Origin: Pseudoscleropodium purum
Taxonomy: Eukaryota; Streptophyta; Bryopsida; Hypnales; Brachytheciaceae
Length of the DNA stretch: 64,000 nt
Assembly: GCA_963969395.1 (NCBI GenBank)
Contig: OZ017804.1
Location: forward strand, 18,910,001 to 18,974,000
Direction: 5' to 3'
The position numbers and the translations under genes are program-made. The notes under the pieces are model-generated. The model saw only the letters and a program-made list of their open reading frames with translations, searched no databases and was not told the origin of the DNA. This document shows positions 5,421-46,930 of the stretch, piece by piece; position 1 is the stretch's first letter, and the number at the start of each line of letters is the position of its first letter.

Positions 5421-5905
5421 CCATTTCATATTTTTCATATTTTTAATTCAAACTTGGTAGTACAAAAATTTCAAAACTTAATAATCCAGTCTTGCAAAGG
5501 CACAATAAAAACTTGTTGTCTTCACTTTAAACACAAATTTCTTGCAATCTCCGGTGGCAACAGCAGCCCCGTCGTGGATGGCGAGCAGGAAGGAAAGGGA
5601 TGCTGCTTCAGTTCAGTTAAGGGAGTTCTGTTTGAAGTCGGGGTTGAAACAAACTACTGAAGCAAGCACTATTGGAGGAGCAGTCCATCCTGCTGCTACC
5701 TGTAAGTAGTTCCCCTTATTTCTGCAACAAGGAGTCCTTAATTAGTCCATGGACTGCAAATTTCACTGGGATCACAAACCAAATGGAAAGGAACTTTCAC
5801 ATCTTGTAATTCACAAAAAACTTGAGAACTCAATATGAGAATTTGTAGGTGTTGGTTTCAAGGACGCCCAAAGAAAATATTTCAAAAACTTACCCATACG
5901 TTGTA

Positions 5906-7595: not shown

Positions 7596-8291
7596 TCCAT
7601 CTAAATCATGCATGCCAAAGAGTGGTGTAAAACCTTTCCCAATGGCAGATTTTCAATTATAATAGGCATCCAATTTGCAAGTAGGGTCAACAATGGGCAA
7701 TAGTAGGCGGGCCATCTTCATTCCAAGTCAAATTGGCTTTCTTTTGGCACGGCTAGAGTTCCTTCTTCCTTTCTACATCTTCTAGGCCAGTGAAGGTGAT
7801 TGTCACTCTCATTGAACGGTTTTATCTTGTTTTGAAAGGAAGTCGTGGGGAAGCAGCAACAGTTGGAAATACAGGTGCTCATTGGGTGTGGAAGGCAACA
7901 ACTGGTGTCTATAATGTAGTAGCGGTCCATCCTCCTACATGTGAGTAGTTTCCCTTATTTCTGCAACAATTAGCCCTATTAGTCCATGGACTATAAATTT
8001 CACTATTTTCACACTCCAAATAAAAAGAAACTTTCAAATTTTGTAATTCACAAACACTTGAGATTTCAATATGAGAATCTAGTATTGGTCTTAAATACAC
8101 CTAAAGAAAATACTTTAAAAACTTACTCATACAGTGTACATTTTAATCATGCATGCTAAAAGGTGGTGTGAAATCTTCTCCAAGCTACCTAAGGGGTCCA
8201 CCACAAAAAAGAATTTTGCAACAATAGCAAGCATCCAAATTGCAAGTAGGCGCAACATTGGGCAATAGTAGGCAGGAAATCTTCATCCTAA

Positions 8292-12575: not shown

Positions 12576-14210
12576 GGTGGCAACAGCAACCCTGTAGCGA
12601 CCCCCCGTTCGTCATGCTTGGCGAGCAGGGATTTTCTTTCGGGAAGGGAGGGGATGCCGCTTCAGTTCAATTGAGGGAGTTCTTAACCAAACACTATTGT
12701 AAGTGCACACTGCCCCAAAGTAGTTTCCGTTATTTCTGCAACAATTAGTCCTTCATTAATTAATCCACAGATTGTAAATTTCACCGTTGTCACACTCCAA
12801 ATAAAAAGGATCTTTCAAATTTTGTAATTTACAAAAAAAATTGGGGATTCAATATGAGAATCTAGTGTTGGTTTCAAGCACACCTAAAGAAAATACTTTA
12901 AAAACTTACTCATATAGTATTCATCTAAATCATGCAAGCTAGAAAGTCGTGTGAAACCTTCTCCCAATTGCCTAGAGGGTCCAACATGAAAAAAAATTTG
13001 AAATTATAGTAGGCATTCACGTTGCAACTAGGAGCGACAATCTAGAGTAGTAGCCAACAATGGGCAATAGAAGGCAATAGTAGGTAGGCATGCTTTATTC
13101 TAAGTCAAACTAGCTTTCCTTTGGCACGGCTAGGCTCCTAGTTTTTCTTTTCAACATCCTCTAGGTTGGTGAAGGTGATTTATTCTCTCATTGAATGTTT
13201 TCATCTTATTTTGAAAGGAAGTTGTGGGGAAGCCGTGACAGTTGGAAAGAATGGTGCTCATTAGGTGTGGAAGACAACAAACAATGTCATTTGATGAGTT
13301 TTCCCATAAAAAGGTACTAAATGTGTGAAATGTAAGTTTAGTTACTTTCTTAGCTATGCTATTTATGTAGTCGTAGAGTGAATAGGAAGTTTGATTTTGG
13401 AAAAGATAAAATATCATTGGCCATAAAAATAAAAAAAGATGTAGCAATTGATGAAACATATTAAATTCTAATTTGTTATTGACAAGATTCCCACCAATTA
13501 GGAGGATTCCCATCTAAGATGGGAGGAATCATAGAAGAGGCCATTAATTAGTTACTTATTCAAAAGAAAAAAAAATTCATAGTAGAGGGTCTTACTCAGT
13601 AGTTGCAAGTGGTTTGTTAATTTATTTTCTTAAATTGACACTTCAAATACTCATGCTCAATGGTTATGTGAGACAAAGTGGTTATCATGGATTGTTCTTG
13701 TCTATTGGTGCAATGGATATTTTTGTATGAAGTGTTGCATATAAGATTGTTTCAATTATAGTCATAGCAATTTAAAGATACTGGCTTCAAAAGAATTCAA
13801 TGCTAGAAAATAATTGTTTTTGTATTATTTATTATAAATAAAAAATTATATTATGGAATAAATGATTTTTCATTTAAAAAAATTAACTTACCAATTACCA
13901 TCTATCTCCAAATTTATTTCTAATTGTTTTGTTTTTTGTAGGATTCCTAATTTCTAAACAAAGTTTAGATTTGTACACTTTAACTAAAATGCATAACAAT
14001 GAGGAAAACCCCAACATTGAGAATATGTAGAAGTGTGCATCATTCCTAATTTATCAAATCAAAAGGTGGAGAATATTTCTAACTTCCTATTACTTTCCAT
14101 TGTGCTATAAGTTTGTGAACATCTTCTATCTCAAGGAGATCAAATTTTTTAGATGCAAGAAACACCTTTTCAATTTTCAATTATATAAAGGCTCAAAAAA
14201 ATAAAATAGA
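12576..14210. repeat. 2.9-kb repeat unit, truncated copy (e)
   Basis: Starts with GGTGGCAACAGC and a GC-rich head near 12,600 (GCTTGGCGAGCAGGG), follows the standard order through 13,020-13,600 and the distal block 13,620-14,200, and stops near 14,210 before the last part of the unit. It directly follows copy d in the same orientation. Confidence 0.7.
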
Positions 14211-18159: not shown

Positions 18160-20069
18160 GGGCATGTCGACCACGATGGTGGTAACAGCAGCCCATCGCA
18201 GTCCTCCTTCCATCGTGCCTGACGATGGAGCAGGCAGGGGTTTCTTTTCTTAAGGAAGGGAAGGGAACTAAGAGCATCCCCACCAACTAGTTCCGTATCC
18301 CTAAAATTTTAGGGAGAGGACCTTGAATGCAAATAGAGATGTAGAAACTCCTCGCACCAATCTGCTTCCAAGTTCTGTATCCCTAAATTATACAGAATTC
18401 TGTAAAACGTTGGGCAAGTTCTGTATCCAGAGGCTCGTTTGCCGAACTGGCGAGGTCTCATCCATATCCAGTCAAGTTGACCACATCGAGACTTCAGTTT
18501 TAGGGATACAGAAGCCCCCTGGTGGGGATGCTCTAAGCTTAAGCTTAAGGGATGCCGCTTCAGTTCAATTTCAGCTTAAGGGAGTTCTGTTGAAGTTCGG
18601 GTTTGAAACAAAACCACTCAAGCAAGCACTAAGTTACTGTAGTAGCCACTAAAGTAGTTTCCCTTATTTCTGCAACAATTAGTCCTATATTAGTCCAAAA
18701 ATTTCACCGTTGTCTTACTCCAAAGATAAAGGAACTTTCAAACTTTGTAATTCATAAAAGAACCCTCAAAATTCAATATGAGAATTTGTAACCGATGGTT
18801 TCAAGCGCATCTAAAATAAAATACTTTTAAAACTTACTCATATAGTGTACATCTAAATCATGCATGGCTAAAAGGTGGTGCAAAATGCTTCTCCCAATTG
18901 TTGCCTATGGGGTCCAACATAGAAAAGGATTTGCAACAATAGTCATCATCAATTTGCTAGTAGGTCCAATAGTGGATGGTAGTGGGCAACATTACTAGGT
19001 CAAATTGGCTTTCCTTTGCAACGGCTTGAGTTTCTCCATCCACTAGGTTGGTGAAGGTGATTGAGACTCATTTTGATTGTTTTTAGCTTTTTTGAAAGGA
19101 AGTCGTGGATGAGTGGTGATAGTTGGAAATAGTGGACCTCATTGTGTGCGAAAGACCACAAAGGGTGCCCATAAAGTATCCTTTGACAAGTTTTGTATAG
19201 AAAGGCACTAAATGCATGGCATCTAAGTTGAGTAGTCACTTTCTTAGCCATGCTTTTTAGCCATTCATAGGGTGATTAGGAAGTTGAATTTTGGAAAAGA
19301 TAAGAGTTCAATGGTCATAAAGAAACAATGGAGTTGTCTAGTCATGTAGTAGTTGATGAAACAAATTAAATGCTAGCTTCTTATCAATAAAAGTCCTATT
19401 ACGTAGGGGAATTTCCATTGATGATGGGGTGACTCATAGAAGTCGCTATTCATTTACTTATTCAAAAGAGAAATCTTGATGCTGAAAAGTTGCATTGAAC
19501 TTGTTGCAAGTGGTTTTTTAATTCGCTTATAAAAAAAGATGAAATTGACAATTCAATCCTCACGCTCAATGGTTCTTTGAGACTATGAAAATGGTGGTCA
19601 AGGATTGTTTCCATCTATTGATGCAATGGAGATTTTTGAACAATTGTTGCATGTAAGATTGTTGGAAGTACAACAACAATTGAATGATATTGGCTTCAAA
19701 AGAATTCAATGCTTAAAAAATATTTTTCTTATATCATATATTATAAATAAGACATTTATGGGGGAAAAGTTAATTCTTCATTTAAGGAATGAACTTACTG
19801 TGTCTCTCCAAATCGATTTCTAATTGGTGTTTTCCTTATAATTAGTAATTTCAAAACAAAGTTTACATTTGTACACTTTCACCAAAATGCATAGGGTAAT
19901 CAAGATAATACCAATATTCACAATATAAAGTAGTGTATATTATTCCTAATTTATCAAATCAAAATATAGATAATTCTTTTAAGTTCCTATTATCTTCCAC
20001 TGCGCTACAAGTTTGTGAACATCGTTTATTTCAAGGAAATCAATTTTTTTGGATACAAGGCATACCTCT
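18160..20069. repeat. 2.9-kb repeat unit (copy f, first part)
   Basis: Begins GGTGGTAACAGCAGCCC near 18,177 and follows the standard order (GCAACAATTAGTCC near 18,670, TTACTCATATAG near 18,832, distal block from 19,490). It is interrupted by a MITE at 18,272-18,533 and cut by a TTAA element at 20,070. Confidence 0.7.
18272..18533. mobile_element. MITE with GAGCATCCCCACCA ends and TAA duplication
   Basis: A 262-bp element starting GAGCATCCCCACCA and ending TGGTGGGGATGCTC, a perfect 14-bp inverted repeat, flanked by TAA at 18,269-18,271 and 18,534-18,536. The 3-bp TAA duplication points to PIF/Harbinger-type mobilisation. It lies inside the head of a 2.9-kb unit; the ATCCCTAAA/TTTAGGGAT pair just inside the ends extends the inverted symmetry. 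Non-coding. Confidence 0.88.
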
Positions 20070-22150: not shown

Positions 22151-22760
22151 TGGGTGAGAAAACAATTTCTTATATATCTATGGGGTACTAGTTGGTAGAA
22201 CAAACAATGTGGGATATGTAATTTACAATTTGTAGTTTCTTAACTGCTCATAGTTTAGTCAAATTAAAGCAAAGGATTGTGATTGAAGTAGAATTTCAGA
22301 CCTCATTTAGGCATAGTATAAAAACTTTTTTTAAAATCTTTGAATTGAAAAAAGTTGGTAAATGAAGTTAAGTTTTCTCTCCAAAAATCCTTTTGAGATT
22401 TAGATCCTCCAATCAAAAGTTATGGACAAATTTCAGAGAGGGGTTGGAAGGAAATTTCTTTTTGACATATGCAAACATCCTCTTTGAAATTTATCTATAA
22501 CTTTTGATTGGAGGATCTAAATTTCAAAGGGATTTTTGGAGATGAAATTGATCTCCATTTAACAACTTTTCATTGCTATAGTTTGTTTGAAAAAAGTTAT
22601 TATACTATGCCTAAACGAGGTCTGAAATTTTACTTCAATCACAATTCCTACTTTTGATTTTAACTATGAGTGTTTAAAAAACTATAAATCCTAATTTATA
22701 AATCCCACATGGGTTGTTCTATCTCCTACCACCCCATAGATATATAAAGAGATTCTCCCC
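22151..22760. mobile_element. foldback element with arms of about 290 bp
   Basis: The left arm (22,151 to about 22,446) and right arm (about 22,466-22,760) are inverted copies at roughly 80 percent identity by eye, separated by about 20-40 bp. Outer ends contain TATATATCTATGGGGT and its complement; inner ends contain CCTCCAATCAAAAGTTAT and its complement. There is no coding content. Transcribed through, it would form a long hairpin RNA, a possible small-RNA source. I cannot identify a target duplication. Confidence 0.85.
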
Positions 22761-22979: not shown

Positions 22980-23850
22980 ATGAGTTTCGTGGATGACGCC
23001 TCTGGGGAGGGAAAGGCAGCCTCCCTGAAGGCTACTGAATGTTATGGCTTCGATTGATTTAAGGGAGTTATGTTTTAAGTCGGGGGTTTGAAACAAACTA
23101 CAGTGTATTGAAGTGAAGCAAACACTAAGCTTACTATAGTAGCAGTCTGTCCTACTACCTGTTGTAAATTTCACCGTTGTCACATTTCCAAATTTTGTAA
23201 TTTGCTAAAAACTTGAGAATTCAATATGAGAATCTAGTGTTGGTTTCAAAGGCACCTAAAGGAAAGAACTTTAAAAACTTACTCATATGGTATACATCTA
23301 AATCATGCATGCTAAAAAGTGGTGTGAAACCTTCTCCCAATTGCCTATAGGATCCAACTTAAAAAAAAAATTGCAATAATAGTAGGCATCTGAGTTGCAA
23401 GTAGGACCTGCAATAGGCCACATTAGGCAATAGTACGGGGGTATTTTTCATTCTAGGTCAAATTGGCACGGGTAGAGTTCTTTTTTCTTTTTTCTCCATC
23501 CTTTAGGCTGTTGAAGGTGATTGCCATTCTCATTGAATAGTTCTAGCTTGTTTTGAAAGGAAGTCATAGATAAGTGGCAACAATTGGAAAGAATGGTGCT
23601 CATTAGGTGTGGAAGACAACCAAGGGTGCCAATAGTGTATCCTTTGATGAATTTTCTTTTAGAAAGGTACTAAATGCGTGGCATCTAAGCTGAGTTGTGA
23701 CTTTCTTAGCTTTGCTTTTTATCCATTGTAAGGTGAATAGGAAGTTGGATCATCAAAAAGATAAAAGTTTAATGGTTATAGAAAACAAAAAAGTTGTCTT
23801 GGTCATATAGTAGTTGATGAAACAAATTAAATGCTAGTTGAGGGAGTTAT
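22980..23850. repeat. 2.9-kb repeat unit, proximal part (copy g), cut at the large transposon
   Basis: The head near 22,990-23,110 (GGGGGTTTGAAACAAACTAC) is followed by the usual block (TTACTCATATGG near 23,278) up to ACAAATTAAATGCTAG near 23,836. There it switches to a short head-like fragment (TTGAGGGAGTTATGTTT) and then the terminal repeat at 23,857. Confidence 0.65.
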
Positions 23851-23856
23851 GTTTAA

Positions 23857-23892
23857 GGTAAACCAGCCTATGACAAGCAAATCGCCTAATGC
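23857..23892. repeat. left terminal inverted repeat of the 8.48-kb transposon
   Basis: Begins GGTAAACCAGCCTATGACA and ends GCCTAATGC. The partner is at 32,297-32,332 in inverse orientation with four mismatches, all between positions 20 and 27. Confidence 0.9.
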
Positions 23893-24329
23893 AGACATCT
23901 ATAAAACAACTCAATTCAGGAGTAATTGGGTGGATTACCGAATATTTGCATTTCAAATCTTCTGACTACTTTAGGAAGTAGTTGGCTTGTAATTGATAAT
24001 TAGTTCTTTGTCATAGAATTTAACAATGTTGTATTGAGAAGTAGAGGGATAGTTCTGACATTGCAAAAAGGCTGATTAATGCAATAATGTCACTAAATTG
24101 GATATAATAAGAGCCTCTCTTTAAATTGAAAAACGACGGCCTTACAGAAATCAAAGACTGAAAAGCAATGAAGTAGTACACAAAAGAGGCAGTTGATTTA
24201 GATCACAAAGCAGACTCTAGAACATTATAATTTTCATTTGCAAGTGTTCTTTTACATATGTGCAAAGGTCTAATGCACCATTTGAGTAGCTAAAGCACCA
24301 CTAGAAGGACACTAGTTCTGCATTCAACT

Positions 24330-27273
24330 ATGAGAGAGAACACTAGTGATGATGAAATGGAGAGTTTCCTCAATGCTGATTTATATGACAGGGCAGATTC
24401 AAGTGTTGAATATTATAGCAATAGCAGATCAAAGAGTGAGGAGGATGCCGCTTTAGATGACCAAGAAGAAGGCCAATATGAAGACCTCATTGATTCAATT
24501 TTTGGTCATGAGGATTCAGAAAGAGTGCTGCAGCACAAAGGAGCCATAATATTAGGGAAGAGGGCCACAAAACTAGGAGGAACTAGAATCAAGATAAAGG
24601 TTGAAATCACAACACTCAGGACATTGAAGGAGAAACAAGGAGTATCAGTGATGCAAGGAGAGACCTATAAAAAGGAGATACTAGATTTGAAGAAGAGTTG
24701 TGGCAGTGGAGAGCAATGGAGGGGTCAACAAGAAACTGAGCAAGAAGAATGGGACACATCTGCAAGAATATCAAAAGGTAAGCAAAAGATGTACCTTGGT
24801 GGAAGTGGGGATGAGATGAATAGGGATTATATTGTGAAGAATTCCTATGAAGGCAACAAATCCAACAACAAGATGGAGAAGAGAAGGAGAATAGTTAGCA
24901 ATGAGGAAGGCAAGAGTATGGGCACATCTAGCAATGATGAAGGTAGTAGAAAGGAAAAATCTAGTAGTAATGAAGGTAGGAGTAGGCACAAATCTAGTAA
25001 TGATGAAGGCAAGAGCAAGGGCACATCTAGCAGTGATGAAGGAAAGAGCAAAGGCAGATCTAGTGGTGATGAAGGTAGAAGAAGGGGTAGATCCAAGACT
25101 GATGCAAGCAAGACAAGGGGCAGATTTAACAATGATGTAGACAAGAAAAGGAGTAGATCCAACAATGATAAAGGCAATGAAGAAAAAAGATGCTATATTG
25201 AGGAGAATGGAGGCAATCAACAATCTCCTACAATTGATTCACATGCTTGGAGCAATTCAGAACTTGATGAAAATCAAAAGAAAGAAGAGGACAAAAGCCA
25301 AAGAGGATTATGGAGACAAAGAGAAGGTTCACTTACAAAGAAGAAGCCCTCTTCAGCTGCAAGGCAAGGCAATCAACATCCACACAATGTTAGAGAAAGC
25401 ACAAGAAAGGCAAAGGTAATTGTCCCTATATCTTTTCTAAAACCAGCAGTAGACATTAGGGACACAATGCCTTTGCCTCCTAAGTACTCAAGTGGATCAA
25501 AGAAGCCAAAATAATAGTCCCGTGGATCATGGTCAAATGAATCTCTTCAAAAAGCAATCTTAGCTATAGAAGATGGACATAAACTGAAGGTTGTAAGTGA
25601 TTTTTACAACATCCCAAGAACAAGCATCATGGAGCATGTTAATGGCAAAAGAAAAATAAGAAAACTAGGAAGAAAAGGAGTTCTTACCATTGAAGAAGAG
25701 GCTGGACTAGTAGAATATTTGGACAATATGTTAGCATTAGGACATCCTTTAACTATCAATGATTTGAAAGGAAAGGTTGCTGAAATGGTAGAAGGGAGAC
25801 CTAATCCCTTTACAAATGGAATTCCAGGAGATAGTTGGGTTAAATGGTTTAAAAAAAGACACCCTACCTTCACCTTAAGAGTAGCCCAAGGGTTAGAAGT
25901 CAATAGGGCCATTGGCTTATGTCTAACCAATGTCAAAATATTTTATGACAACCTAGCATCTTTGTATGCGTTGAACCAGTATCCTCCACATCACATTTGG
26001 AATGTAGATGAAAGTGGAGCTCAAGCTGGAAAGGGAGGAGCTAGAGTATTAGCATGTAGAGGAATAAGAGTGGTCCATTCATTGATTGCAAATGAAAGAG
26101 AATCATTGACAATTTTAAGTTCTATAAATGCTGGAGGTAAAACCATTCCTAACTTCTACATATTCAAAGGGACTCATAGAACGAGAGATTACCTAGCCTT
26201 ATATGAAGTTGATCTACTAAAGGAATACAACCTAATGGTTGGATGAATTCATTTTTGTTCTCTAAGTGGATTGACCATTTTATAGCTAAAATTGCAAAAA
26301 AGGAGGGATGAGCACAACCAATAGACACTTGATGATTCTAGATAGCCTTAATTCCCATGTTACTTTGGATGTCATAACAAAAGCAAGAGATGTAGGGTTA
26401 GATGTATGCTCTTTACCATCACATACCTCTCATGTACTTCATCCCCTAGATGTGGCAGTTTTCAAACCTTTTAAAACTGCATTTAGGGCCTACATGGACA
26501 TTTTGACATTGCAAAACAAAGGAAAAAAATTTGGAAAGGAGGGTTTAGCACAATGGGTTAGTTTAGTACTTCACAAAGCCATGACAACAAGCAACATCAA
26601 GGCTGGATTTAGGGCTACAGGAATATGGCCACTAAATCCACACAAATTGGACATGAAAATGAGAACTAGTGAGGGATTTATTACCAAGCCACTAGAGGTA
26701 CAAATTCAAGAGATTTTGGAGGAAGATGTACCTGGTACCCAAGAAGATGTTGTCCACTATTATGTTGATGAAGAAGGTGATTGCCCATTTGAAGACCAAG
26801 AGACTGATGCTGGTGTTGATCCTACAAATGAAGGACATTTCAGCAGATTTTTGAGGTTACCACAACAAGTCATCAAACCAAGAAGAAGCATAGAGGATCT
26901 CAGGGTTGATTATTCAAAATCTCGTATACTAACTAGCAGCCAACACATTCAGAATGTGGAGGCATTGGCAAGCAAGAAAGCTAAGGCTATGGAAGAAACA
27001 AAGAGGAGGAAAGAAGAAAGGGAGCTTACAAAAGTGAAGAGAAGGGAGGAGAAGGCTCAACAAGATGTCATCAAGTTTGCAAAACAAGCTGAAAGAAGAG
27101 CAAACAAATTATACAAGGCACAATGGACAAATAAAGCTGTCAAAGAAGCAGGTGAGAGACTACATAGGGCTATTAAAGCAGGGGTAGGGAGAAATCCAAG
27201 ATTATCTCCATATTGTGGATTTCAACCAGCTCAATGCAAATCAAATCAAAAAAATTGCTATAGAGAGACTTAG
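24330..27273 (+). pseudogene. pogo/Tigger-type transposase (HTH_psq + DDE), broken
   Basis: One frame runs from the ATG at 24,330 to 26,246, interrupted only by adjacent TAA TAG at 25,512-25,517, and continues after a frameshift near 26,285 to 27,273. The N-terminal 390 codons are acidic and lysine/serine-rich with a 12-13 residue repeat. After the stops, WSNESLQKAILAIEDGHKL begins a psq-type helix-turn-helix, followed by WVKWFKKRHP, typical of the CENP-B/Tc5 DNA-binding region. Catalytic blocks follow: WNVDESGAQ (first Asp), MILDSLNSH (second Asp, 26,330-26,360) and HPLDVAVFKPFK. The tail (about 26,960-27,170) is a charged, probably coiled-coil segment. Two stops and one frameshift make it non-functional unless the first part is a separate ORF. 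Family membership is firm. Confidence 0.92.
24890..25190 (+). repeat. in-frame minisatellite encoding Ser/Lys/Asp/Glu-Gly repeats
   Basis: About eight degenerate copies of a 36-39 bp unit, each encoding variants of SSNDEGKSKG. It lies inside the transposase leader ORF and keeps the frame. It gives a low-complexity charged linker; a nuclear or DNA-contact role is only a guess. Confidence 0.85.
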
Positions 27274-27685
27274 AGCCAAAAGAAAGAGGAAAGAAAATGG
27301 AACACCTCTACCAACTTTTTCTCCTATTGTAGAGTTGCCATGGTCAAGTACATCATGGATATGGAACCAACAAGGTCAAACTCTACAAGTTTCAATGCAT
27401 ATAATAGGCAAAACCTTTGGAATGCCCCAAAGTTTTGTAGTTTCAGGCTAGCAACAACCTGTGCAAAGGACAAACCCCTTTATAACTTTACTACAGTAGT
27501 GAAAGTTCTTACACTTAAAAAATTGAAAATAGAAAAGACTTTGGAATAGGGAAAGGAATATATAGCTTTGAGCAACTAAGAAGAAGATAGTATATTAGGG
27601 ATCCAAATGGGTTGGACAATCTCCTTAAAACCAAAACTACAAAGCACAAGCAAGGATAGACTTAGAACATGTCAAAATTGAATAT

Positions 27686-27940
27686 GTGAAAGGACAATTT
27701 GACCAAGAGGAGCTAGAGAAAGCTAAGCAACACATGCAAACATTGATTGAATTGGCAAGAAATCCTTCAGTTCCTCCATTCGCACCTAGCATTAGTATTC
27801 TTGAAGTTACTCTTTTGTACTCAGTTGATTATTTAACTATTCCAAAGGCTTTTCTAACTACACATGTACATTTTGTTTATGTCATTTTGAGTTTCATGAT
27901 GATGAAAATGATCTGCAAGGAATTTATCATTTACAACTAG
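27686..27940 (+). CDS. unassigned short ORF in the transposon
   Basis: The open frame (84 codons from its ATG; coding-like sequence starts about 20 bp earlier) has a helical, charged start (GQFDQEELEKAKQHMQTLIE) and a hydrophobic end. It follows the transposase by about 400 bp on the same strand. It may be the degraded tail of the transposase, a second transposon gene, or captured host sequence. I recognise no domain, and the second half is not convincingly coding. Confidence 0.3.
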   Translation: MKGQFDQEELEKAKQHMQTLIELARNPSVPPFAPSISILEVTLLYSVDYLTIPKAFLTTHVHFVYVILSFMMMKMICKEFIIYN

Positions 27941-28309
27941 TTTTTTCTATGCTACAGTTCTTTTTTGACTATAAGCATGTTGAACACTGTAAGCTACAAA
28001 AAGGGCATAAAATTTAGCTTATCTTCTTCAATCTAAAACCTACAAGAACTACTATTCTAAAGAAGACCTTTGAAATTTTGTGTGAGATTTTGATGCTTAT
28101 CGTGGTGAACACATACAAGAAATGAGCTTAACTTTAGTAGCTTCCAATGTGAAGGCACAAAAAGTGCTACACAATGAAGGCTTTGGCAAGTGCTGCACAA
28201 ATAGTAACGATAACAAGGAATCTCAATGCCAACAGCTAGTACAAAAAGGTTGATTTAGCTTTCCAAAAGGAATAATGAGCACTGGAGATAGTATGTACCT
28301 TTGTGACAC

Positions 28310-30281
28310 TACCATTGTTGTTCGATTGCACCTTGATAGCAATGTATTTCTTCTTTTTGAGCAACAATATCTACTTGTAGACTCCATCCAGGTCAATCTC
28401 CAAGAGCCTGTATTTCTTATTTACTTGCAAAAGTGGGTTGAATGAAGTGATGCCAAACAAGTATTTCATCTAAATTCTTGAAGATAGCATCACCCAAAAA
28501 AAACTATGAAGTGAATGAAGTTGTTTATCTCTTTGATGACCTTCGCAGCTATGGTCTTTGCTGCCAAAAGATCCTATCGTCCAGAATGAATCATGATAGA
28601 ATCTGTGTCCCCATATATTACTTGTCAAGAACCACTGATCATGCCCCACACGCCTTACCAAATATATCATAGATTAGGTGGAAAGTAAGAGATACTAGTG
28701 TGGACACATATGAACTCATTCATACTTTCATAAAGGATATTGGTCACGGCCTTGAGTTGAGAAATTCCAAGAACACAAGCTTTTACGAAACATTCAAGAA
28801 ACTAGTGAATTTCCATTGAGAGGCTCAAAACACAATAAATGGCTAATCTGCAAAAATGAAGGCATACTTGTGCAATGATAAGTTTTGCAATAGGCTTGGT
28901 AGAGAATCCTGAATTATTAAATCCAAGGCATCCATCCATATTACACATGACAAAACAGTGTCATATTCATAGAACTAATCAGTTATGGCTAATAAGAATG
29001 GGCAACATGTTCAAATTGCAAAGATAGGATGTAAGATGAATTTCAACTACATGTTGATATAACATAGTGCTGATCCTTACAAGAGTTCAAAACTCACAAG
29101 TTACATGGTTGCGTGTCATACAACAAGTACCTATTGACAGTGAGTTTAAGAGCCTGTTGCTAGATGTCGAATTGGTAATACTTGCAAATATCAATTGTCT
29201 TCTTTAGCCATCCTTTCACTTGTTTCATTCAGTCTATTAGACCCTTTAGTACCTATCCATTCGCAATACTCTCATTATCAGCACACTCCCACATTGTATA
29301 TTATATAATGGAAATGTCATACATTTTGAGAGCATCAAGCATTACATAAACTAGTGATACATGCTACACCAAGATAGAAAGATTAAAATTTGACAACCAA
29401 ATTCATGCATCAATGGAAGCAAAAAGTCCAACAATGTCGATAGTGTACCTAAGGAAGTACACCTAGCACTTCATTTGAAGGGAGGGAAGGAATTGCACTA
29501 GTGATAGCTCTCTCTATAGTTGTAAAGCAGACGTTGAATTCTTGAAGGGTGAAACATGAAAATCTAATCATTAATGCAATTCAAGGAAGGTGACATGCAA
29601 ATCTCAAAAGTCAAAGAAAAGCTATTTCAATGTAAGATAGTTTGTTTCTAATACCAAGTAATTGAAGTAAAAGAAGATCTCAGAAGTTGAAACAAAGAAT
29701 CGAATAGCACTAAAAGACTCAAAGCTTTTAGGATGAAGCTGAATGATAGAAGGATACAAATTCTTGAAGTCAAGTAGCAAGATAAACTTGTCATAGAGAC
29801 CCTTCGTGGGCTCTAATACCAAGCCTCCAAGATATGCAGATCTTTTCTTCCCTTTCTTGCCAAGAGCATTGTCAAAAATGACTTCAGAATTGTAACCATC
29901 GTCACCATCTGCATGTAGATCTCCAAGAGTTGGTGTCTTTCTCTTACTAGCCTCTTTCTCTTTTTGCGATAGATTGTCAAAAAGTATAAACTTTTGCAAA
30001 TGAAACTCGTGTAATAGAAGATATTCTACCCTCTGTGCCTTAGCTCCCTTCAAAACATATTGAAGAAAACAAGCCCACTATCCTTCAATCAAGGATCCTT
30101 GACTCATTTCAAGTGCCAATAAGACTATCCAAATGAGATGTTAAATCTGAATGTTTCGTAGACTCATACCTGCAACGTCTTACCCCACAAATTTTCACTG
30201 ATATTCATGAATTGACGGGTCAATGGCAACACGCTTACATGAAACATGAGACCTAAAGATAGTCATGCGTCTGTCTCTCTA
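28310..30281 (-). pseudogene. POLA1: DNA polymerase alpha catalytic subunit, intron-containing decayed segment
   Basis: Read on the - strand, seven exon-like blocks follow the family B order of Pol alpha. They are: about 30,281-30,171 (LSLGLMFHVSVLPLTRQF, then WGKTLQ after a one-base frameshift); about 30,048-29,730 (GAKAQRVEYLLLHEF, then GGLVLEPTKGLYDKF and motif A, LLLDFKNLYPSIIQ); about 29,545-29,449 (EFNVCFTTIERA); about 29,255-29,117 (QQALKLTVN, motif B region); about 28,948-28,860 (GCLGFNNSGFSTKPIAKL); about 28,775-28,505 (motif C, VIYGDTDSIMIHSG); about 28,445-28,310 (KKYRLLEIDLDGVYK, LLLKKKKY). An apparent donor (GTATGAGT) follows the first block. Several stops occur (for example DA*LS where Trp is expected) and frameshifts are present. 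It covers the polymerase core only; the N-terminal region and C-terminal zinc module are not seen. In the host the enzyme would extend RNA primers at replication starts. Retained intervening DNA shows a genomic copy, not a processed one. Confidence 0.92.
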
Positions 30282-30289
30282 GATTCAAT

Positions 30290-32296
30290 TTGTAATCACC
30301 ATTCCATATATTATCCTTACAGTATAAGGAAATGAAAGAAACGTTTCACAGTAAACCATTGAGCACCACAACTAGAGGTAGTTCTCTTGAGAAACACATT
30401 GCTTCAAACTGACATATTTGGGACCAAAGAGATTCCTTCAAAAACATACTAGAATCTAATAATCTTCAGTTGTCAATTTACTTAAAATAAGAGAACTTAC
30501 CAGTTCTATCAAGGAAGAGGTGTTCCCATACATTCACCAAAAATTTCACTCAATCCCAAGTTTCTAGAAACTTACCAACATAAACAAATGTCGAGCTGAT
30601 GATCCTTGCTTGCGGAGAAACTTTTGTCGATTACCCTCAAGTTGATCAATTTCCTACATAGACTGGGAGTCGGTGACCTCTTGTGAAACTTAAAGGCAAA
30701 TCTAAGACGTCCTACAATTAATTGCAAATGATCTCAAAGAGTGAGCTACAAAGCCTGACTTGCACTTGCACTCTTGCTGTAGTGGGTCACAACCGGAATG
30801 TAAAAGAACAACACACGCCATAGTCGACCTATGTAGCTTGTGGCCATGTCGTCGTCTTCTTCGATCTTCGGTGCAAGATAAAACCTGATGTGACCCATCT
30901 CGACAATCTTGTACTCCACAAAAACGGGCAGTTATTTCGACATACTCACCATCACAATGCTTGACAAAGATGTAGCTTTTATAAAAGAAAAAGTATCGCA
31001 ATGCAAATATCAACGTCAAAAGCTCTTGCATCTCCACGACTGTCTTGTCCTCTTCTTGCAAAACACGTCAATACGCACTCTTGCAATGAATTTGCAGGCC
31101 ATGAAATTGCTGTCTTCAGTCACCACTCACCTTATCAACTGACGAGTTTTGCCTGCACACGATGTTGGCGCTCCCAATGTCCCCTCCCGTTGAGAATTTC
31201 ACTCATTCCTTCCTTCGTCACAGAGATCACCACTGCACACACCTAAAACTCAAGCTCAATTCAATCTTCAAAAACAGCACACACACAGCCATTCCACATG
31301 CACATGAAAGCATTTTGACACATCCGCAAGGGATAACGAAGTGAGCATGTCCAACCGTGGCACCACAGATCCATCCTATAAGAATGCACAAGGAAACCAC
31401 AAATTCTGACCTAAACTCCATACCCCACTCGATCAATCAAACCACCACGACACCGAGTATGAATACTTGTGTCACGAATGGTGCTCAAATTCTCGCAGAT
31501 GTGAGAAAACTCTGCAGACAGCAAAATCCCTATATTAGGGTTGACTCCCACAAACTCAAATGCGCTGAAGCTCCTGATCTTTGCTAAAAACAAGCTGAAG
31601 CAGGCCAAATTCCGGGGTAGGGATGAGCATTTACAACATCAACCTTTGTGTGGAAATGTCAATTGCTTGCTACTTTTACTTCAATCTCGCGGCATCTAGA
31701 AGGCACTGTTCTACCAACATCCGAGTGAAATTTTCCTTCGAAGAGGAACCAAGCATCCAAGGCGACAGATTGGCGTGCAAATTGAAATTGAGCAAGGCCA
31801 AAAAAATTGGGGATTCACTTGTAAAACGGTTAAGTTAGAGGAAATGTCTTGTGGCCCGTTGCTTCTTGATTAGTGGGTTGTGAGATCTGACAAGAATACA
31901 TAAAGACAAGGCAGAGCTATAGTTCCAGCCTTTCATGAAACTAAGAACGGCCACATTGCAATCTGAAATTGGCTGCTCAATGTTTGAAAAGAGCCGGTGT
32001 AAGTTAAAAACAAGCTGATTTTAATGACCTGTAAGTCCACATTGGCATTATTAATGACTGAATTAGACATGTCTCAGGGCAATCATGGACACATGGCTGT
32101 CCTAAGATAGCTTTAAATTTGATGGCTATGACCCAACCTACGGGTTGTTTCAGATCTTCACAACAGATTGCTTCATTAATTAAAATGAAATCGATGTGAT
32201 TATTAAAAAAATTAAATTAAATGATACTTAGTGTTTCTTTAGTGTTCTACAGCTCTGAAAATTAACACCTTGCTGATTTACCTCTATTTTCAGAAC
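30290..32296. other. unassigned cargo DNA, locally GC-richer, inside the transposon
   Basis: This stretch is less AT-rich than its surroundings between about 30,600 and 31,850. Short frames exist on both strands. The most protein-like is on the - strand at about 30,932-30,747 and contains [18 protein letters not shown], but it matches no family I can name. It lies upstream of the polymerase blocks in their reading direction, so it could be their captured 5' part with introns, or a second captured gene. Confidence 0.35.
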
Positions 32297-32332
32297 GCAT
32301 TAGGCATTGTGCCTGTCATAGGCTGGTTTACC
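32297..32332. repeat. right terminal inverted repeat of the 8.48-kb transposon
   Basis: Reads GCATTAGGC at its inner end and TGTCATAGGCTGGTTTACC at its outer end, the inverse of 23,857-23,892. Beyond it the sequence changes to unrelated flank (ATAGTGGGTCC). Confidence 0.9.
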
Positions 32333-32439
32333 ATAGTGGGTCCAGTCGGTTCCGCTGACTTCCAGCTCGTTTGATCTCTGAAGTCAAAGACTGAATCAGG
32401 TACCCCAAATCATATACATACATCAAAACAAGGAAGGGG

Positions 32440-33860
32440 TTTGGGCCCCCAAATTTCTTCAATTTTTTTTATTTTACGTTCTGACTCCTGTAACCTGAAT
32501 CCCAAGGAAGAGGGCTGAAAGACGAGAGAGGTCCAATTATTAACAATCAGTTAACCTCACGCGAGAAAGGAGAGGGTCTTTATTTTTAAATTCAAATTAC
32601 TCCAGTCTAATCAAACTAGAGGGAACTGAGAGTCAGCAAGAGGTCTTGTCTCAAAGGAAGGGTCTAGTTGGCCAACCCGACCAAATTGGAGAGGACTAAA
32701 AGACAGGAAAAAAAGGTCCCTTCTATCAAAAATTTAGTTAATCAAGAGGTCTGAGAGAGGTCCATTTATTAACAATCAGTTACTACTTGAAAGAAAAGAG
32801 AGGGGTTTATTTTATTTTGAAATCCAGTCTAACCCAGTCTAATTAAACCAAAAGGAACCGAGAGTTAGCTAGAGGTCTTGCTACAAAGGAAGGGGCCAAT
32901 TGGCCCAGCTAATCAAACAAGAGAGGACTGAGTGATGAGAAAAAAGGTCCTTTCCATCAAAAAATTTAGTTGATTAATTAAATTCAAGAGGACTGAGGCA
33001 AAGGAAGGTCCTTTTATTCGAATTTGCAGTTGGGCCAAGCTAACCAAAATCAAGGAGAAAGGGTAGACTAGGAGAGAGACTAAAGTGAACTGATAGCAAA
33101 TAGAGATTATTTTTATTTAAATCCGGTTAATCCCAAAAGGGGATAGAGGGAACCTTTTATTTTCATAAATCCAGTGACCTTAAGTTGACCAAAACCAGAA
33201 GGAACAAGAACCTAAAAAGAGTTCCTTATTTAAGAAAAATTCAATTAATTCAAGTTCGGTAAACTTGAGATAAGAGAAAGGTCCCTCCATTCGAAATCGA
33301 GTTGATCACAAACCCAGCAAAGACCGACAGTAATAATAGAGTCCTTTTGTTAGCACAACTCAGCTGATTCCAAGTTGGTTGGATACAGAGAGAAATAGAG
33401 ACATCTTTTATCTTAAAAATTACAGTAAATTAAAGCCATATGAATCACATAAGGAACTGAGAGCAAGGATGGGTCCTTCTGTTTAAAAATTCGATAGACT
33501 TAAGAGTGAACCGAGGGAGTTCTTCTATTTAAGAAATTTCACCTGATTGAACCTAGAGGGGCTGAAGCAAAGAAAGAACCTTTTATTAAACTAATTGGGT
33601 TGATTTCAAGCTTGATCAGAACCAAAGTAGGCTGAGAGCAAAAGGGAGGGTTAATTGACACAAAATCCAGTGGTTTCAAACTGACGGAAATACAGAGTGA
33701 ACTGAGAGTGAGATAGGGTCCCTTATTCTAAATTTTTTGTCAGTCTCAAGCCTAAGCAATACCAGGGAGAGCAGAGAGCAAAAAGAAGGGTTCCCTTCTC
33801 TAAAAAGTCAATAATCTCACGGTAAGTGAACCAGAGAAGTTGATACAGGGAAGGACCTCT
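32440..33860. repeat. degenerate tandem array, unit about 60-70 bp
   Basis: About 20 copies of a unit with consensus AAGGTCCTTTTATTT, then TTCAGTTGATTCAAGC, then AACTGAGAGCAAAG. The GGTCC-like landmark recurs, for example, near 33,220, 33,280, 33,340, 33,401, 33,468, 33,574, 33,645, 33,711, 33,785 and 33,850. Copies are strongly diverged. No coding content. It starts about 110 bp outside the transposon end. Confidence 0.85.
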
Positions 33861-36499: not shown

Positions 36500-37945
36500 A
36501 TCAGCATCTAGATTTGTAATGCTTGCTCAATGTACCACCTCAAAATCATACTCTTGAAGTAGCAATGCCCACCTAACAAGCTTGCTAGTAAGCTTATGTG
36601 ATTCTATAAGCTGCTTAAAAGGTTGGTGATATGTCACCAATGTAAATTGTTGGCCATATAAATAAGGTCAAAAATGTACAATAGCTCAAACTGTAGCCAA
36701 TGCTTTTCCCTCATAAGATAAATAGTTGGACTCTACATTGTTATTACTCCTAAGGGCATATGCAATGATATATTCTCATCCTACATCATCCTTTTGTGTT
36801 AAGATTGCTCCCAATCCCATTGCACTCCAATCTACGTGTAGTTGAAAGGATCTAGTAGCATCTAGCCGTTGAAGTATAGGAACTAAACCCAACTTTTCTT
36901 TCAATGTATCAAAAGCTTGTTGTTGCTTACAGCCCCAAGTCCATGGTTGGTCCTTTTCCATAAGAATTGTCAATGGCTTGGCAATCAAGCTAAAGTTCTT
37001 AACAAACCAGCCATAGTAATTTGCCAAACCAAGAAAAGTTCAAAGTCGTGATACATCAACAATTGTTGGGATCTTGTGCAACACTTCTATCTTTGATTGT
37101 TGCACTCCAAGACCCCCTAGCACAATTACATGGCCCAAATATGGTAATCAATCATGGAAGAACCTACGTTTGCCATGATGCAAGCGCAATCCTCACTTTT
37201 GTAGCTATTCAAATATTGCTTGCAAATGCTTTACATGCTCCTACAAGCTAATGCTAAAGATAATAACATCATCAATGTAGCATCTAGCAAATGGTAGGCT
37301 AATTAAAACTTGGTCCATCACCTTTTAAAACTCAATTGGTGCATTCTTGAGACCAAATAGAAGAAACTTCTAGTGATAGAGTTGATCCTTGTTGTCTTGA
37401 TCAACTCCCCAAAATGTTGTCTTTACTCAATCTCCTATGAGCAATGGCAACTGGTGATAACTAGTTCGTAAGTCTAAAATATTAAAAACTTGAGAAAAGC
37501 CCACTACATCAAATATTTCCTTTGGCATCGACATTGGATATTGATCTAATTTGGTTTTACGATTAACTAGACGGTAATCTCCACACATACGTTTCTCCGT
37601 CCAATTGCTAAATATATCCTTTTTGGAAGGCATAATTGTAGCACAAGCATATTTGCCATTAGAAAGCTCAATTAAACCCATGGCCAATAACTCCCGACAA
37701 CGAGTCAGGATACCATCTCTCTTTGAGATACTCAATCTATAAGGGTGTAGAAAGATTGGATGATCATCTTTCAACTGAATGTGAATAGGTTTGCCTTTAT
37801 AGTCCTCAAGTTCCTCCAATGTAAAGACAAAACAACTACAATATGAGTGAATAAAAAGCCCGTATCCTTTGTGCTTCGACACTAGTAAGATTTGGCCTAA
37901 ATCCAATGGCCAATCATCAAACTCAGTGGCTACCTTATCAACCAA
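36500..37945 (-). pseudogene. Ty3/gypsy reverse transcriptase and RNase H remnant
   Basis: Reading from 37,945 downward: the open stretch to 37,427 carries KRMCGDYRLVNRKT and then FNILDLRTSYHQLPL, the first RT catalytic block. YIDDVIIF (about 37,255-37,290) is the polymerase active-site motif. FLGLANYYGWFVKNFSLIAKPL leads into RNase H with QLHVDWSAMGLGAILTQ (36,776-37,027) and further pieces to about 36,600. Frame changes and stops separate the pieces. Domain order and motifs place it in Ty3/gypsy. Not functional. Confidence 0.92.
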
Positions 37946-38519
37946 TAGGGTACTACTACATGCTAGTACAACTTGTAATTGCTAATCTATAAAAGGCACA
38001 ACTTCCGTGTCCCCAATCTCCTAACTTGAAGTCAAATGAAAGGCTTCATTGCCACAATGTGTATGTAAAGGTGTAATGTCCACAAAAAAAGGAGATCTTG
38101 CAAAAATATCCTTGAAAAAATCTCTTGAAAATTTATTTTCCAAAATCTTGAGCCAAAGCAACAAAAATACATTGAACCTAAAGCTCTTCCACTGCATGCT
38201 GCTTCAAGTGAGAAAATGACTCAGACTCTTTGAACTTAGTAAGTTTTGGCTCCATTGCCCCCTCACTATTGCTTTTTGGCCTTAGAATAAACAAATAATC
38301 ACCATAATGTTGTTGAATAACAAGACATGTGCCAATAACCCACACTAGAATATTGAGATCCATAGCCTAGCCCAAAAGAAAGCGTCGTTGACATTTTGTG
38401 AGGTTGTAAGCAACAATGGTACCAGTTAAAAAATCTATGGTATGTTCTTGCTCATTTGTAGTAGGTTCTTCATGAGTTTGAGAGATATTACTCCAAGCAT
38501 ACCAAGACTATGCGCTTGA

Positions 38520-44549: not shown

Positions 44550-45748
44550 ATGAGCCTTCCAAAAGCATTCTACCTAGTGTAGTTGGAGTATATGCTCAAC
44601 AGTCCATCACTCATATCTTTGGAGCGCTTCATACTCCAAGTGTTGTGGCAATAGTTCAAAAATATACCAATTATTGAAGCTTGGAAACCGTTGATGCCTC
44701 TTTTTCATTCAAGTCCGGAATTGGAGTTTCCAATCGGAAAGAGAAATGCTTCTAGCCCTCCCAAAAAATCAATCCCTCACCATATTGCAAAGATTGTCGT
44801 CTATATCGTAAAATGTACCCACACTCCGAATCCAAAGCCTACTAGTGGTATCCAATGTCAAAATAGGCTCAAAGCCTCATTAGTATCCATTGCTTGCCCA
44901 AAATCGTTGGTGTGACTATCTTCCAAGTTGTTTAGTGATGAAAATTGATAATATTGACTCTTAGTGTATACCATTAAAGGATTACTTGGGTACCTACAAC
45001 TATTTAAAGGCTAAAAGCAATCTACACTTGTATCACCATCAAACTTGTAGTTCACGGATCATTACTTCTCGAGTACCACAATTCAAACAAGCACCACCCA
45101 CTTGGTGCACAGAAAATGGTCTCGCCGATGATTAATCCGACTTCACTACCATGATACATCTATCAAAATGAAAGCCTATTCACAAACAAAAAATGGGACA
45201 AAACTGGAAACTACCGACAACAATCAATCCACGCATATGTGATTTTTGCGCCATTTGTCTAGCCAGGTAGCGAGGCACCAGTGGCTGACTCAGAAAAGTC
45301 GAGCAGTGGTGCAAGGATGTCCTTCCCCACACACCTACACCTACACGCGTCAAGTTATTCCAGAGTGAGTTTCAGGGTTTCAGCTTCCACATGAGAGCCA
45401 TTAGAACATTATTTGGAGTGAAGGGCTAGCACATAATTGCATGAATCCCCCCTTCTCTTTCAAAATTTTGGTGAATTTTTAAATTTGAGTGTGCAAGATT
45501 GGAGCTATCGAAGATGGCTAACCATGTTGTCCTTGTTTTTTTTTGCATTTGTAGTTGTACTTTTGACCTTTTTTGGTTGTAGACATCGTTGTGTACTACC
45601 TAATATTCTAGTTCAAATCAAAGGGGGTCATACAATGCGACGCTTGTTGCCAATTATTACAATCTTAGTTTGGAGGCAACAGTGTCCATATTGCATGTGG
45701 TGGATTGAGTTGTACTAGTACATCCACTACGACATTGTAGAAGGTGAT

Positions 45749-46930
45749 GTGTGGCACACATCTCCGCAAATACTTGATATGAAGTATTGGTTAACTTATC
45801 GTATGGACTTTTTAGCCTTTGAGGCTTTAGTTGATTTGTTAACACCTTTTTTAAGGCCTATTGCAGCTACTTTTGTAAGACCCCCCATTCCAATTAGAAA
45901 ACAAATCAAGCTTGTTTTGTATCGATTAGCTGACATTGTAAGTTGTGCTAGGATGTACAGCTTATATGGATATGGTGAGTCAACTATCCGTAAGTACACA
46001 ATGATTGTATGTAGGGTATTAGCTACTAGAAGAGAAAATGGTTTATTCTTTCATTTCATTCACATCCTTGATGGTGATCACTTGCATAATATCATAGAAG
46101 GCTTTATAGATATCACAAGTTTGCCTAATATAGCTGGTCCAATTGGTAGCATTCATATCCCATTGGCATATCAACCTAATGGACGATACACTCCCATGCC
46201 CCAAGATTTTTTTAATCAAAAAAAATTTCATAGCATAGTCTTACAAGGTGTGTGTCATGCAAACATGATATTTTGGAATGTTTGTGCTGGGCAACCTGGA
46301 AGAGTCCATGATGTTGGACAATTTGTTGTGTCTTCTATTGCAACAAAATTGAGTACTAGACAAACTTTAGCATGACCTATCATCCACTTGAGTGGCATGG
46401 ATATCATGCCATATCTAATTGGGGACACAGCTTATCCTAGCAAATTGTATTTGCTTAAGAATTTCAAATCAGAGAATCCAACAATGGTTGATCACATTCA
46501 GTACACTTCTTTCCTTTTTTTTTTTCTTTCTGATGTTCACTTTAAGATGATTCATAATTTTTATGTGTATTTATTAAGTAATTTTTTGGAGGTTTCTACA
46601 AATTTGACTCAACTGTTAATCATGGAAGAGTAGTTATAGAACAAGCATTTGGAGGCTTGAATAATTGTTGGCGCATCCTTAGAGCTTTCAACATGTCCAT
46701 TGAGAAGGCTGTTATTGTTACATTAGCTTGTTGTGTTTTACACAACTATTGTGAGTTAAAGAAGCAATGAATGCCCGTGCTAGCAAATGTCAGACTTCGA
46801 CATGACCCACATGTGGATTTCCATGTTGGAAGGATGCAACTTCCCCATGAAGGGTTAGCTGCTAAAGTAGCTAGAGAAGCAATGTGAAACATCTTATTTG
46901 CATCTTGGCTAGAATGCAATCCAGAGTGAT
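45749..46930 (+). pseudogene. PIF/Harbinger DDE transposase, inactivated
   Basis: One frame runs 45,749-46,375, passes a TGA and continues to about 46,500 with YLIGDTAYPSKLYLLKNF (second Asp block). After an intron-like gap (about 46,499-46,590; GTACAC donor-like start, TTGGAG acceptor-like end) it resumes near 46,617 as NHGRVVIEQAFGGLNNCWRIL (Glu block) and LACCVLHNYCE. The first catalytic block should contain D-G-T after GSI, but reads IGSIHIP, so a short in-frame deletion removed the catalytic Asp. The N-terminal part (FLAFEALVDLLTPFL) is the usual helical region of DDE_4 proteins. Two more stops lie in the tail. Pairs with the gene at 48,380-49,010. Confidence 0.93.

What the first reader, a model, noticed from the sequence alone, without database searches (positions are those of the whole stretch)
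23857..32332. A pogo-like DNA transposon that appears to have captured part of the DNA polymerase alpha gene
A 36-bp inverted repeat (32 of 36 matching) encloses both a pogo/Tigger-type transposase and, on the other strand, seven exon-like blocks of the replicative polymerase alpha core with intervening DNA kept. Capture of host gene fragments is well known for Mutator-like and CACTA elements and Helitrons in plants. I do not know of it as usual for pogo-like elements, least of all with a replication polymerase.
Basis: partly seen in the sequence, partly recalled or inferred. Interest (0 to 1): 0.88.

Follow-up and report, generated by a model that had tools for sequence, protein, structure and literature searches.

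The report
Moss transposon carrying replication-gene pieces
A pogo-type jumping gene in a moss genome has picked up intron-containing pieces of two DNA-replication genes (DNA polymerase alpha and the sliding clamp PCNA) and spread them to several places, and its relatives in the same genome carry other DNA, some of it from other host genes, in the same internal slot.

Summary
The element is 23856-32333 (8,478 bp), with 36-bp TIRs and TA on both sides. It holds a broken pogo transposase (+) and, antisense, 2.4 kb of POLA1 with introns. In the window's own genome (unnamed, 313 Mb, moss by gene trees) I found 22 right-end and 24 full-length left-end matches, window included. Two further elements, on two other contigs, match the window element from TA to TA at 93-94%, carry both genes and have unrelated flanks. 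All 9 POLA1 matches other than the window and the donor gene lie in this family. Donor genes for POLA1 and PCNA survive elsewhere (about 88% and 84%). So this is true transduplication. More generally, the family has fixed arms (about 4.2 and 0.65-0.8 kb) around a variable cargo bay: all 20 paired elements exceed the arms by about 3 kb or more; two others carry PreP-protease pieces, one of them also a RUS piece. The four firmly named fragments are antisense to the transposase. One cargo-bearing copy keeps a 1,062-aa transposase frame. Gene capture by TIR elements is known; this is a new variant.

The parts
23854..23855 (.). TA target-site duplication, left
   Evidence: TA on the left in 12 of 12 complete copies
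23856..23892 (+). left terminal inverted repeat
   Evidence: the 435-bp left end has 24 full-length matches at 86% or more in the genome, window included
24294..25514 (+). N-terminal part of the transposase frame (Ser/Lys-rich, 33-bp repeats); in this copy cut off by two adjacent stop codons
   Evidence: in copy L011 the same stretch is one frame with the transposase (1,062 aa)
25518..27451 (+). pogo-type transposase (HTH_Tnp_Tc5, DDE_1, spacing DD35D), broken by at least 3 frameshifts here
23856..28019 (+). left arm shared by the family
   Evidence: similarity of eight copies without POLA1 (L010, L011, L018, L021, L022, L023, L025, L027) ends at 27979-28019; identity to seven other copies 93.8-95.6%
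28020..28126 (.). 107 bp, probably the rest of the ancestral left arm: the diverged member L029, which lacks POLA1, matches up to 28128
28127..30535 (-). captured POLA1 segment, introns kept (exons aa about 797-1141), 87.6-87.8% to the donor gene; about 275 bp of the donor missing at 28744-28749
30540..30765 (.). further host piece, 82% to C43:2142504-2142721, function unknown
30767..31523 (-). captured PCNA segment (exons aa 141-264 plus some 3' DNA), introns kept but one shortened, 83-84% to the donor gene L042
31524..31691 (.). 168 bp, probably ancestral right arm: kept in the PCNA-bearing copies and in the diverged member L029 (match starts at 31525)
31692..32333 (.). right arm shared by the family
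   Evidence: six copies without PCNA (L011, L020, L021, L024, L025, L027) start matching exactly at 31692
32297..32333 (-). right terminal inverted repeat
32334..32335 (.). TA target-site duplication, right
   Evidence: TA in 12 of 12 complete copies and after 18 of the 20 fetched right ends

Best explanation
This is one copy of a pogo-superfamily DNA transposon family in a moss. The family took up genomic DNA of host genes (introns included) into a slot between its transposase gene and its right arm, and then copied that cargo to new chromosomal sites by transposition. Shown: an 8.48-kb unit with TIRs and TA duplications; three end-to-end copies with POLA1 plus PCNA on three contigs with unrelated flanks; donor genes elsewhere; relatives with other or partly deleted cargo; one cargo-bearing copy with an uninterrupted transposase frame. 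Inferred: DNA entered during repair of the gap left by cut-and-paste excision, when synthesis switched to other genomic templates, and later aborted repairs made the internal deletions that distinguish the copies. The cargo is non-coding passenger DNA.
For: Element ends and TA. Right end: 22 matches; 14 of the 21 besides the window begin exactly at the TA base 32335, the rest within 4 bases of it. L014 and L019 cover 23854-32335. Flanks of 12 complete copies (up to 600 bp left, 98 bp right) gave no BLAST hit in any of 66 pairs on either side. 9 of 9 POLA1 matches other than window and donor sit in elements. Donor POLA1 (L035/L037, hits 77-100% to P0121 over aa 624-1299) and donor PCNA (L042, 4 exons, 96-100%). 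Window cargo is 87.6-87.8% (POLA1) and 83-84% (PCNA) to the donors, but POLA1 cargo is 93-96% between the window and L012, L014, L019, L026 (L016, L017 pieces 88.6-90.3%), so capture came before most of the spread. L015, L016, L017, L028 keep upstream POLA1 exons that the window lost. Decay: at columns conserved in at least 95% of relatives POLA1 is wrong at 33/186, PCNA 6/67, transposase 4/74 (POLA1 against transposase p = 0.01); stops 6/431 codons against 0/568 (p = 0.006).
Against: The repair-switch mechanism itself was not observed; no junction scar was analysed. PCNA decay alone does not differ significantly from that of the transposase (p = 0.52 and 0.15 at the 95% and 90% columns). Frameshifts do not discriminate: at least 3 in 1.9 kb of transposase, 2 in the PCNA exons, none clear in the POLA1 exons. 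The stop count leaves out two stops before the transposase domain and one PCNA stop that I trimmed. PCNA cargo of L014 and L019 differs from the window's by 8-10%. The left-arm tree does not group all copies that share cargo: the window, L014 and L019 are not a clade, nor are L012, L013 and L026; either the tree is poorly resolved or cargo was exchanged between copies. Four of 24 left ends and two of 22 right-end matches have no partner in the lists.
Confidence: 0.9

Rival explanations
1. Capture by fusion: two neighbouring family insertions (or two TIRs) trapped the host DNA between them and moved as one composite element, as proposed for Pack-TYPE elements. It differs from the best explanation only in how the DNA got in.
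For: This is the published model for Pack-TYPE elements of all DNA superfamilies (PMC8903248 section 9). Cargo lies between two fixed arms.
Against: POLA1, the 226-bp piece and PCNA come from three places on three contigs (C44, C43, C42), and the last two are joined at 30765/30767; that needs several fusions. (The POLA1 joint at 30535/30538 is an internal deletion, since L016 has POLA1 upstream DNA there.) No internal TIR remnant was seen in the window element (other 36-mers at most 21/36).
Confidence: 0.3
2. Two unrelated pogo remnants happen to flank a patch of POLA1 and PCNA DNA, or the patch was inserted into a dead element later.
For: Before the genome search the right flank did not continue the repeat on the left, so a chance pairing of ends was possible.
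Against: Two other end-to-end copies on other contigs with unrelated flanks. 20 of 21 long right ends pair with a left end. POLA1 cargo is more decayed than the transposase.
Confidence: 0.01
3. A nested Helitron or other gene-capturing element brought the cargo into the pogo element.
For: Helitrons typically carry several gene fragments with introns (recalled).
Against: No perfect GC-rich hairpin followed by CTRRT between 27400 and 32340 on either strand, and no inverted repeat above 80% enclosing the cargo besides the TIRs in the list (the 25 longest of 33 pairs).
Confidence: 0.03
4. The polymerase and clamp pieces come from a DNA virus integrated in the moss genome.
For: Giant-virus relatives reported in moss genomes can carry polymerase and clamp genes (recalled).
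Against: In trees the POLA1 piece sits with Ceratodon and two unnamed proteins (0.999) and the PCNA piece with Ceratodon, Physcomitrium and unnamed proteins, and both align to host genes with introns.
Confidence: 0.005
5. The cargo is kept by selection: antisense pieces of essential genes shield the element from silencing or tune the host genes.
For: The four firmly named cargo genes are antisense to the transposase. A link between pogo transposases and PCNA protein is in print (PMC5371812, passages).
Against: Cargo decays with stops and deletions. Other members carry non-replication genes. No strict PCNA-binding motif in the window transposase. No expression or small-RNA data.
Confidence: 0.04

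Closest known systems
Pack-TYPE transposons, in particular Pack-Mariner of rice (PMC8903248; passages and section 9 seen)
   Same: TIR element with captured host coding DNA between the TIRs; successive acquisitions; most CACTA and Mariner Pack elements are low copy
   Different: Pack-TYPE elements are defined as non-autonomous; here the transposase arm is present in 16 of 20 fetched loci and one copy has an uninterrupted frame. The captured pieces in the examples I read are 58-280 bp; here about 0.76 and 2.4 kb with introns, in a pogo element of a moss
Transposase-bearing gene carriers of the fungus Pyrenophora tritici-repentis: a hAT with a histone H3-like gene and a Tc1/mariner element with an extra ORF (PMC3538342; passages seen)
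   Same: likely autonomous DNA transposons with an extra gene between the TIRs, in many copies
   Different: one extra coding gene per family there; here fragmentary, intron-bearing pieces that differ between copies in one slot
pogo superfamily, including the plant Lemi family (PMC7386202; passages seen)
   Same: DDE_1 plus HTH_Tnp_Tc5 transposase, TIR of 40 bp or less, TA duplication, DD35D
   Different: published full elements are 1.2-5.2 kb; here 15 of 20 pairs span 7.8-10.9 kb and five more. That paper found land-plant pogo in 23 eudicots only; PMC7325037 (passages seen) adds Selaginella. The arms alone (about 4.8-5.1 kb) fit the published range
RPA-carrying plant Helitrons (PMC4683698; passages seen)
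   Same: a transposon that has acquired a replication-type gene
   Different: there a coding gene in a Helitron; here decayed fragments

Membership tests
pogo superfamily | transposase with DDE_1 catalytic and CENP-B/Tc5-type DNA-binding domains | tested here: met
   window, both above cut-off; L011: DDE_1 above, HTH_Tnp_Tc5 below cut-off
pogo superfamily | TIRs, usually 40 bp or less | tested here: met
pogo superfamily | TA target-site duplication | tested here: met
   12 of 12 complete copies
pogo superfamily | DDxD spacing in the published range (DD29-59D) | tested here: met
   DD35D counted by me on the translation; range from PMC7386202
pogo superfamily | length 1.2-5.2 kb | tested here: not met
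   8.48 kb here; arms without cargo about 4.8-5.1 kb
Lemi family within pogo | phylogenetic placement of the transposase | not tested
   no tree with named pogo families was built
Pack-TYPE element | captured host coding DNA between the TIRs | tested here: met
Pack-TYPE element | cargo duplicated to new sites by the element | tested here: met
Pack-TYPE element | non-autonomous, no transposase match | tested here: not met
   left-arm/transposase sequence in the window and 16 of 20 fetched loci; 1,062-aa frame in L011
Helitron | 3' hairpin plus CTRR end, no TIR or TSD | tested here: not met
   TIRs and TA present

The most novel reading that the evidence does not exclude
A transposase-encoding pogo family whose full-length members have a cargo bay at one fixed place, refilled again and again with DNA of different host genes, always in one orientation (antisense to the transposase): a self-mobile gene shuffler with a directional capture step, rather than a chance capture by one dead copy.
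Probability: 0.35. Interest if true: 0.85.

Novelty: new variant of a known kind. Interest (0 to 1): 0.72.

Why it matters
Gene shuffling by plant TIR elements is described mainly for non-autonomous Pack elements that borrow a transposase. Here, in a moss, transposase-bearing elements themselves carry the cargo, donor genes are still present, and copies at different stages (POLA1 upstream part, downstream part, both; intron deletions; other genes) sit side by side. That makes capture order, deletion and a possible strand bias readable from one genome, and extends gene capture to the pogo superfamily.

Tried and rejected
Dropped ideas. (1) A replication-gene theme: PCNA beside POLA1 first looked non-random, but other members carry PreP-protease and RUS pieces, so it is probably chance. 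(2) A PCNA-binding motif in the transposase: only a non-canonical QEDVVHYY; a strict motif in 1 of 120 relatives; not supported. (3) Reading the left flank as a broken repeat whose continuation should follow the element: the 16-23-bp matches are chance level. (4) Subterminal repeats beyond the TIRs: none above shuffles. (5) TIR 19-mer in viral contigs: 0; in genome contigs: one bacterial MAG hit, about what chance gives by my arithmetic. (6) Transposase relatives in viral contigs: none. (7) L010/L022 cargo: long matches in three places only, no donor. (8) L025 cargo: long matches at 94-98%, not sorted into copies and donors. (9) Further cargo in 27440-28295 and 31440-32300: 9 of the 12 frames scanned against Pfam, best match E 4.9. 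(10) An LRR-like stretch in L018: the best PDB matches are designed Pizza proteins (E 3e-10), LRR receptors follow at E 3e-5, almost no single stretch passes on its own, and Pfam and NCBIfam give nothing; left unnamed. I lowered the novel reading from 0.4 to 0.35 for that.
Full report
What is there. The inverted repeats are real: 32 of 36 bases, against at most 26 of 36 in 100 resampled end pairs. With the outer bases and the TA duplication the element is 23856-32333, 8,478 bp. On the plus strand lies a pogo-type transposase (HTH_Tnp_Tc5 and DDE_1; DD35D counted by me). Its best-scoring relative is an unnamed protein at 52% identity over 99% of the query; the named ones among the 120 listed are from Taxus and Adiantum, at 41%. 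In this copy the frame is broken: two adjacent stops after a 406-aa N-terminal part and at least three frameshifts.

The cargo. Seven POLA1 exon blocks lie on the minus strand, in order, between 30289 and 28296, with gaps of about 100-250 bp between them. A frame near 30.9 kb matches the C-terminus of PCNA (E 2e-13), and tblastn gives exons for residues 141-264 (E 2e-34). A profile scan of all six frames of the 64-kb window finds significant POLA1 and PCNA matches nowhere else. In trees of 121 tips each, the POLA1 piece joins Ceratodon and two unnamed proteins (0.999), and the PCNA piece nests with unnamed proteins, Ceratodon and Physcomitrium (support 0.75-0.89), both on long branches (names). 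So the host is most likely a moss and both pieces are decayed host genes.

The genome test. After many unanswered tries, the genome search answered. The window is C48:18910001-18974000 of a 313-Mb genome. The right end has 22 matches, window included. I fetched 20 of the other 21 as 10-kb loci, L010-L029; the one left out is a 40-bp match. L014 and L019 match the window element over its whole length, 23854-32335, at 94.4% and 93.1%, including POLA1 and PCNA. The flanks of 12 complete copies (up to 600 bp left, 98 bp right) gave no BLAST hit in any of 66 pairs on either side. TA stands on both sides in 12 of 12; of all 20 fetched right ends 18 are followed by TA (L021 and L029 are not). Homology that stops at the TIRs on both sides marks transposition, not segmental duplication.

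POLA1 in the genome. The 2-kb query gave 12 matches. One is the window and two form the donor gene at C44:13666396-13668669. The other nine all lie in family members: seven in fetched loci (L012, L013, L014, L016, L017, L019, L026), one inside the 48-kb interval between the ends of L015 and joined to left-arm sequence (L040), and one at C43:9950174, joined to left-arm sequence (L039) and about 4 kb from a left end. The donor gives hits of 77-100% to P0121 over aa 624-1299, the part fetched; two hits contain one stop each, and both overlap neighbouring hits at their ends, so probably overrun into introns. It aligns to 28127-30535 at 87.6-87.8% through exons and introns. The window copy lacks about 275 bp of it.

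PCNA in the genome. The donor at C42:22431641-22432629 has four exons covering residues 1-264 at 96-100% to P0245 and no stop in the hits; a second, inverted copy 4.6 kb away was not fetched. It aligns to 30767-31523 at 83-84%, with one intron shortened in the window. A further piece, 30540-30765, matches C43:2142504-2142721 at 82% and two nearby places; I could not name it. The joint 30535/30538 in the window is an internal deletion, because L016 has 2.6 kb with upstream POLA1 exons there.

The family. Comparing the 20 loci with the window shows a left arm (23856 to about 28019: left TIR and transposase) and a right arm (31692-32333). The diverged member L029 (about 78% here) has no POLA1 or PCNA protein hit, and its similarity ends at 28128 and resumes at 31525, within two bases of the limits of the POLA1 and PCNA donor matches (28127, 31523). 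That suggests ancestral arms of 5.1 kb and one bay site, filled with 6.3 kb of other DNA in L029; that DNA might also be the original interior. Between the arms, contents differ. POLA1 plus PCNA: window, L014, L019. Other parts of POLA1 plus PCNA: L016 (aa 477-847), L015 (479-739), L028 (399-770), L017 (479-669 and 1076-1141). POLA1 downstream part (aa 951-1141), another 1.9 kb and a PCNA remnant of up to 178 bp: L012, L013, L026. Other DNA with a PCNA remnant: L010, L022 and L018, L023. Other DNA without PCNA: L011, L027, L021, L025, L020, L024. Named contents: PreP-type M16 protease in L011 (Pfam E 4e-15; PDB zinc metalloprotease E 2e-19) and L025 (E 1.5e-11); a RUS/UVB-sensitive domain in L025 (E 1.5e-6, just above cut-off); a kinesin-like coiled coil in L011 (weak: E 1e-3, below cut-off; no PDB match). 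Most other cargo frames tried gave nothing: no Pfam match for 6 of 10 (one of them POLA1 by tblastn) and 8 of 9 cargo frames, no NCBIfam match for 7 of 7. The L010/L022 cargo has no donor in the genome.

Sizes and pairing. The left end has 40 matches, a capped list (40 of 45 candidates scored): 24 full-length at 86% or more, two at 75-79%, one partial and 13 short. Of the 21 long right ends, 20 pair with a left end in inverted order: 15 span 7.8-10.9 kb and five span 11.4, 14.1, 15.7, 24.2 and 48.3 kb (L029, L028, L024, L020, L015, positions). L012 and the 40-bp match have no left partner, and four of the 24 left ends have no right partner. None of the 20 pairs is an arms-only element; each holds about 3 kb or more beyond the arms. 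The long intervals may hold later insertions; I did not check. Arms-only copies outside the capped lists cannot be excluded.

Order of events. Window cargo differs from its donors by 12% (POLA1) and 16-17% (PCNA), but POLA1 cargo differs between the window and L012, L014, L019 and L026 by 4-7% (L016 and L017 pieces by 10-11%); left arms differ by 4-6%. Capture therefore preceded most of the spread. The decay test agrees in part: POLA1 departs from conserved columns at 33 of 186, PCNA at 6 of 67, the transposase at 4 of 74. POLA1 against transposase is significant (p = 0.01), PCNA against transposase is not (p = 0.52). Stops: 6 of 431 cargo codons against 0 of 568 (p = 0.006), with one PCNA stop and the two stops before the transposase domain left out of the strings. 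At codons invariant in the nearest proteins, POLA1 and PCNA show 54/627 and 17/255 changes per non-synonymous site (0.086, 0.067), compatible with loss of function at about the same time. The left-arm tree has very short inner branches. Some cargo classes are clades (L018+L023 1.0; L010+L022 0.908; L011+L027 inside a 1.0 clade with L021, whose cargo differs), others are not: the window groups with L016 and L017 (0.975) and not with L014 and L019, and L012, L013, L026 are scattered. Poor resolution or exchange of cargo between copies would explain this.

Autonomy. In L011, a complete 8.45-kb copy with PreP and kinesin-like cargo, the N-terminal part and the transposase form one 1,062-aa frame. 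Whether it is active is unknown.

Strand. POLA1, PCNA, PreP and RUS are all antisense to the transposase, as is the weak kinesin call. Four of four gives p = 0.125 two-sided, five of five 0.06, if independent: a lead, not a result.

Mechanism. Shown: capture at the DNA level (introns), from several loci, followed by transposition and internal deletion. Inferred: template switching during gap repair; the fusion model of Pack-TYPE elements (PMC8903248) is the main rival.

Against what is known. Pack-Mariner elements of rice are close but are defined as non-autonomous. Transposase-bearing carriers are in print for a fungus, including a Tc1/mariner element (PMC3538342). pogo elements are listed at 1.2-5.2 kb, in land plants in eudicots only (PMC7386202), with Selaginella added by PMC7325037. 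I noticed no report of host-gene capture by plant pogo elements in the listings, which cover open-licence PMC papers only. Of the papers cited I saw passages or one section, not whole texts.

Noticed in passing
window 5902-7599: Large near-perfect inverted structure: arms 5902-6133/7368-7599 (95%), 6126-6359/7141-7374 (92%), 6357-6478/7023-7144 (98%). A possible foldback element.
   Followed up: no
window 22170-22747: A 578-bp palindrome-like stretch (77.6% self-complementary).
   Followed up: no
window 4550-5350, 12761-13545, 18682-19450, 23185-23839: A diverged local repeat family left of the element; the copy at 23185 breaks near 23839, shortly before the element.
   Followed up: partly
window 32524-32971 and 37427-37981: A 232-bp imperfect tandem repeat and a minus-strand frame that looks like a Ty3-type reverse transcriptase by eye (no Pfam match), to the right of the element.
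   Followed up: no
window 45719-46375: Frame with a DDE_Tnp_4 match (E 8e-6), perhaps a Harbinger-like transposase remnant.
   Followed up: no
genome G000, 13 places: Short matches (51-64 bp) to the left end only; they may mark short non-autonomous relatives of the family.
   Followed up: no
G000:C42:22426069-22432629: Two PCNA gene copies in inverted orientation about 4.6 kb apart.
   Followed up: partly
L010 6160-9057 and L022: 2.8-kb cargo found in three places (94-100%) with no donor found in the genome.
   Followed up: partly
window 31585-31598 and 32005-32018: A perfect 14-bp direct repeat 420 bp apart in the right arm.
   Followed up: no
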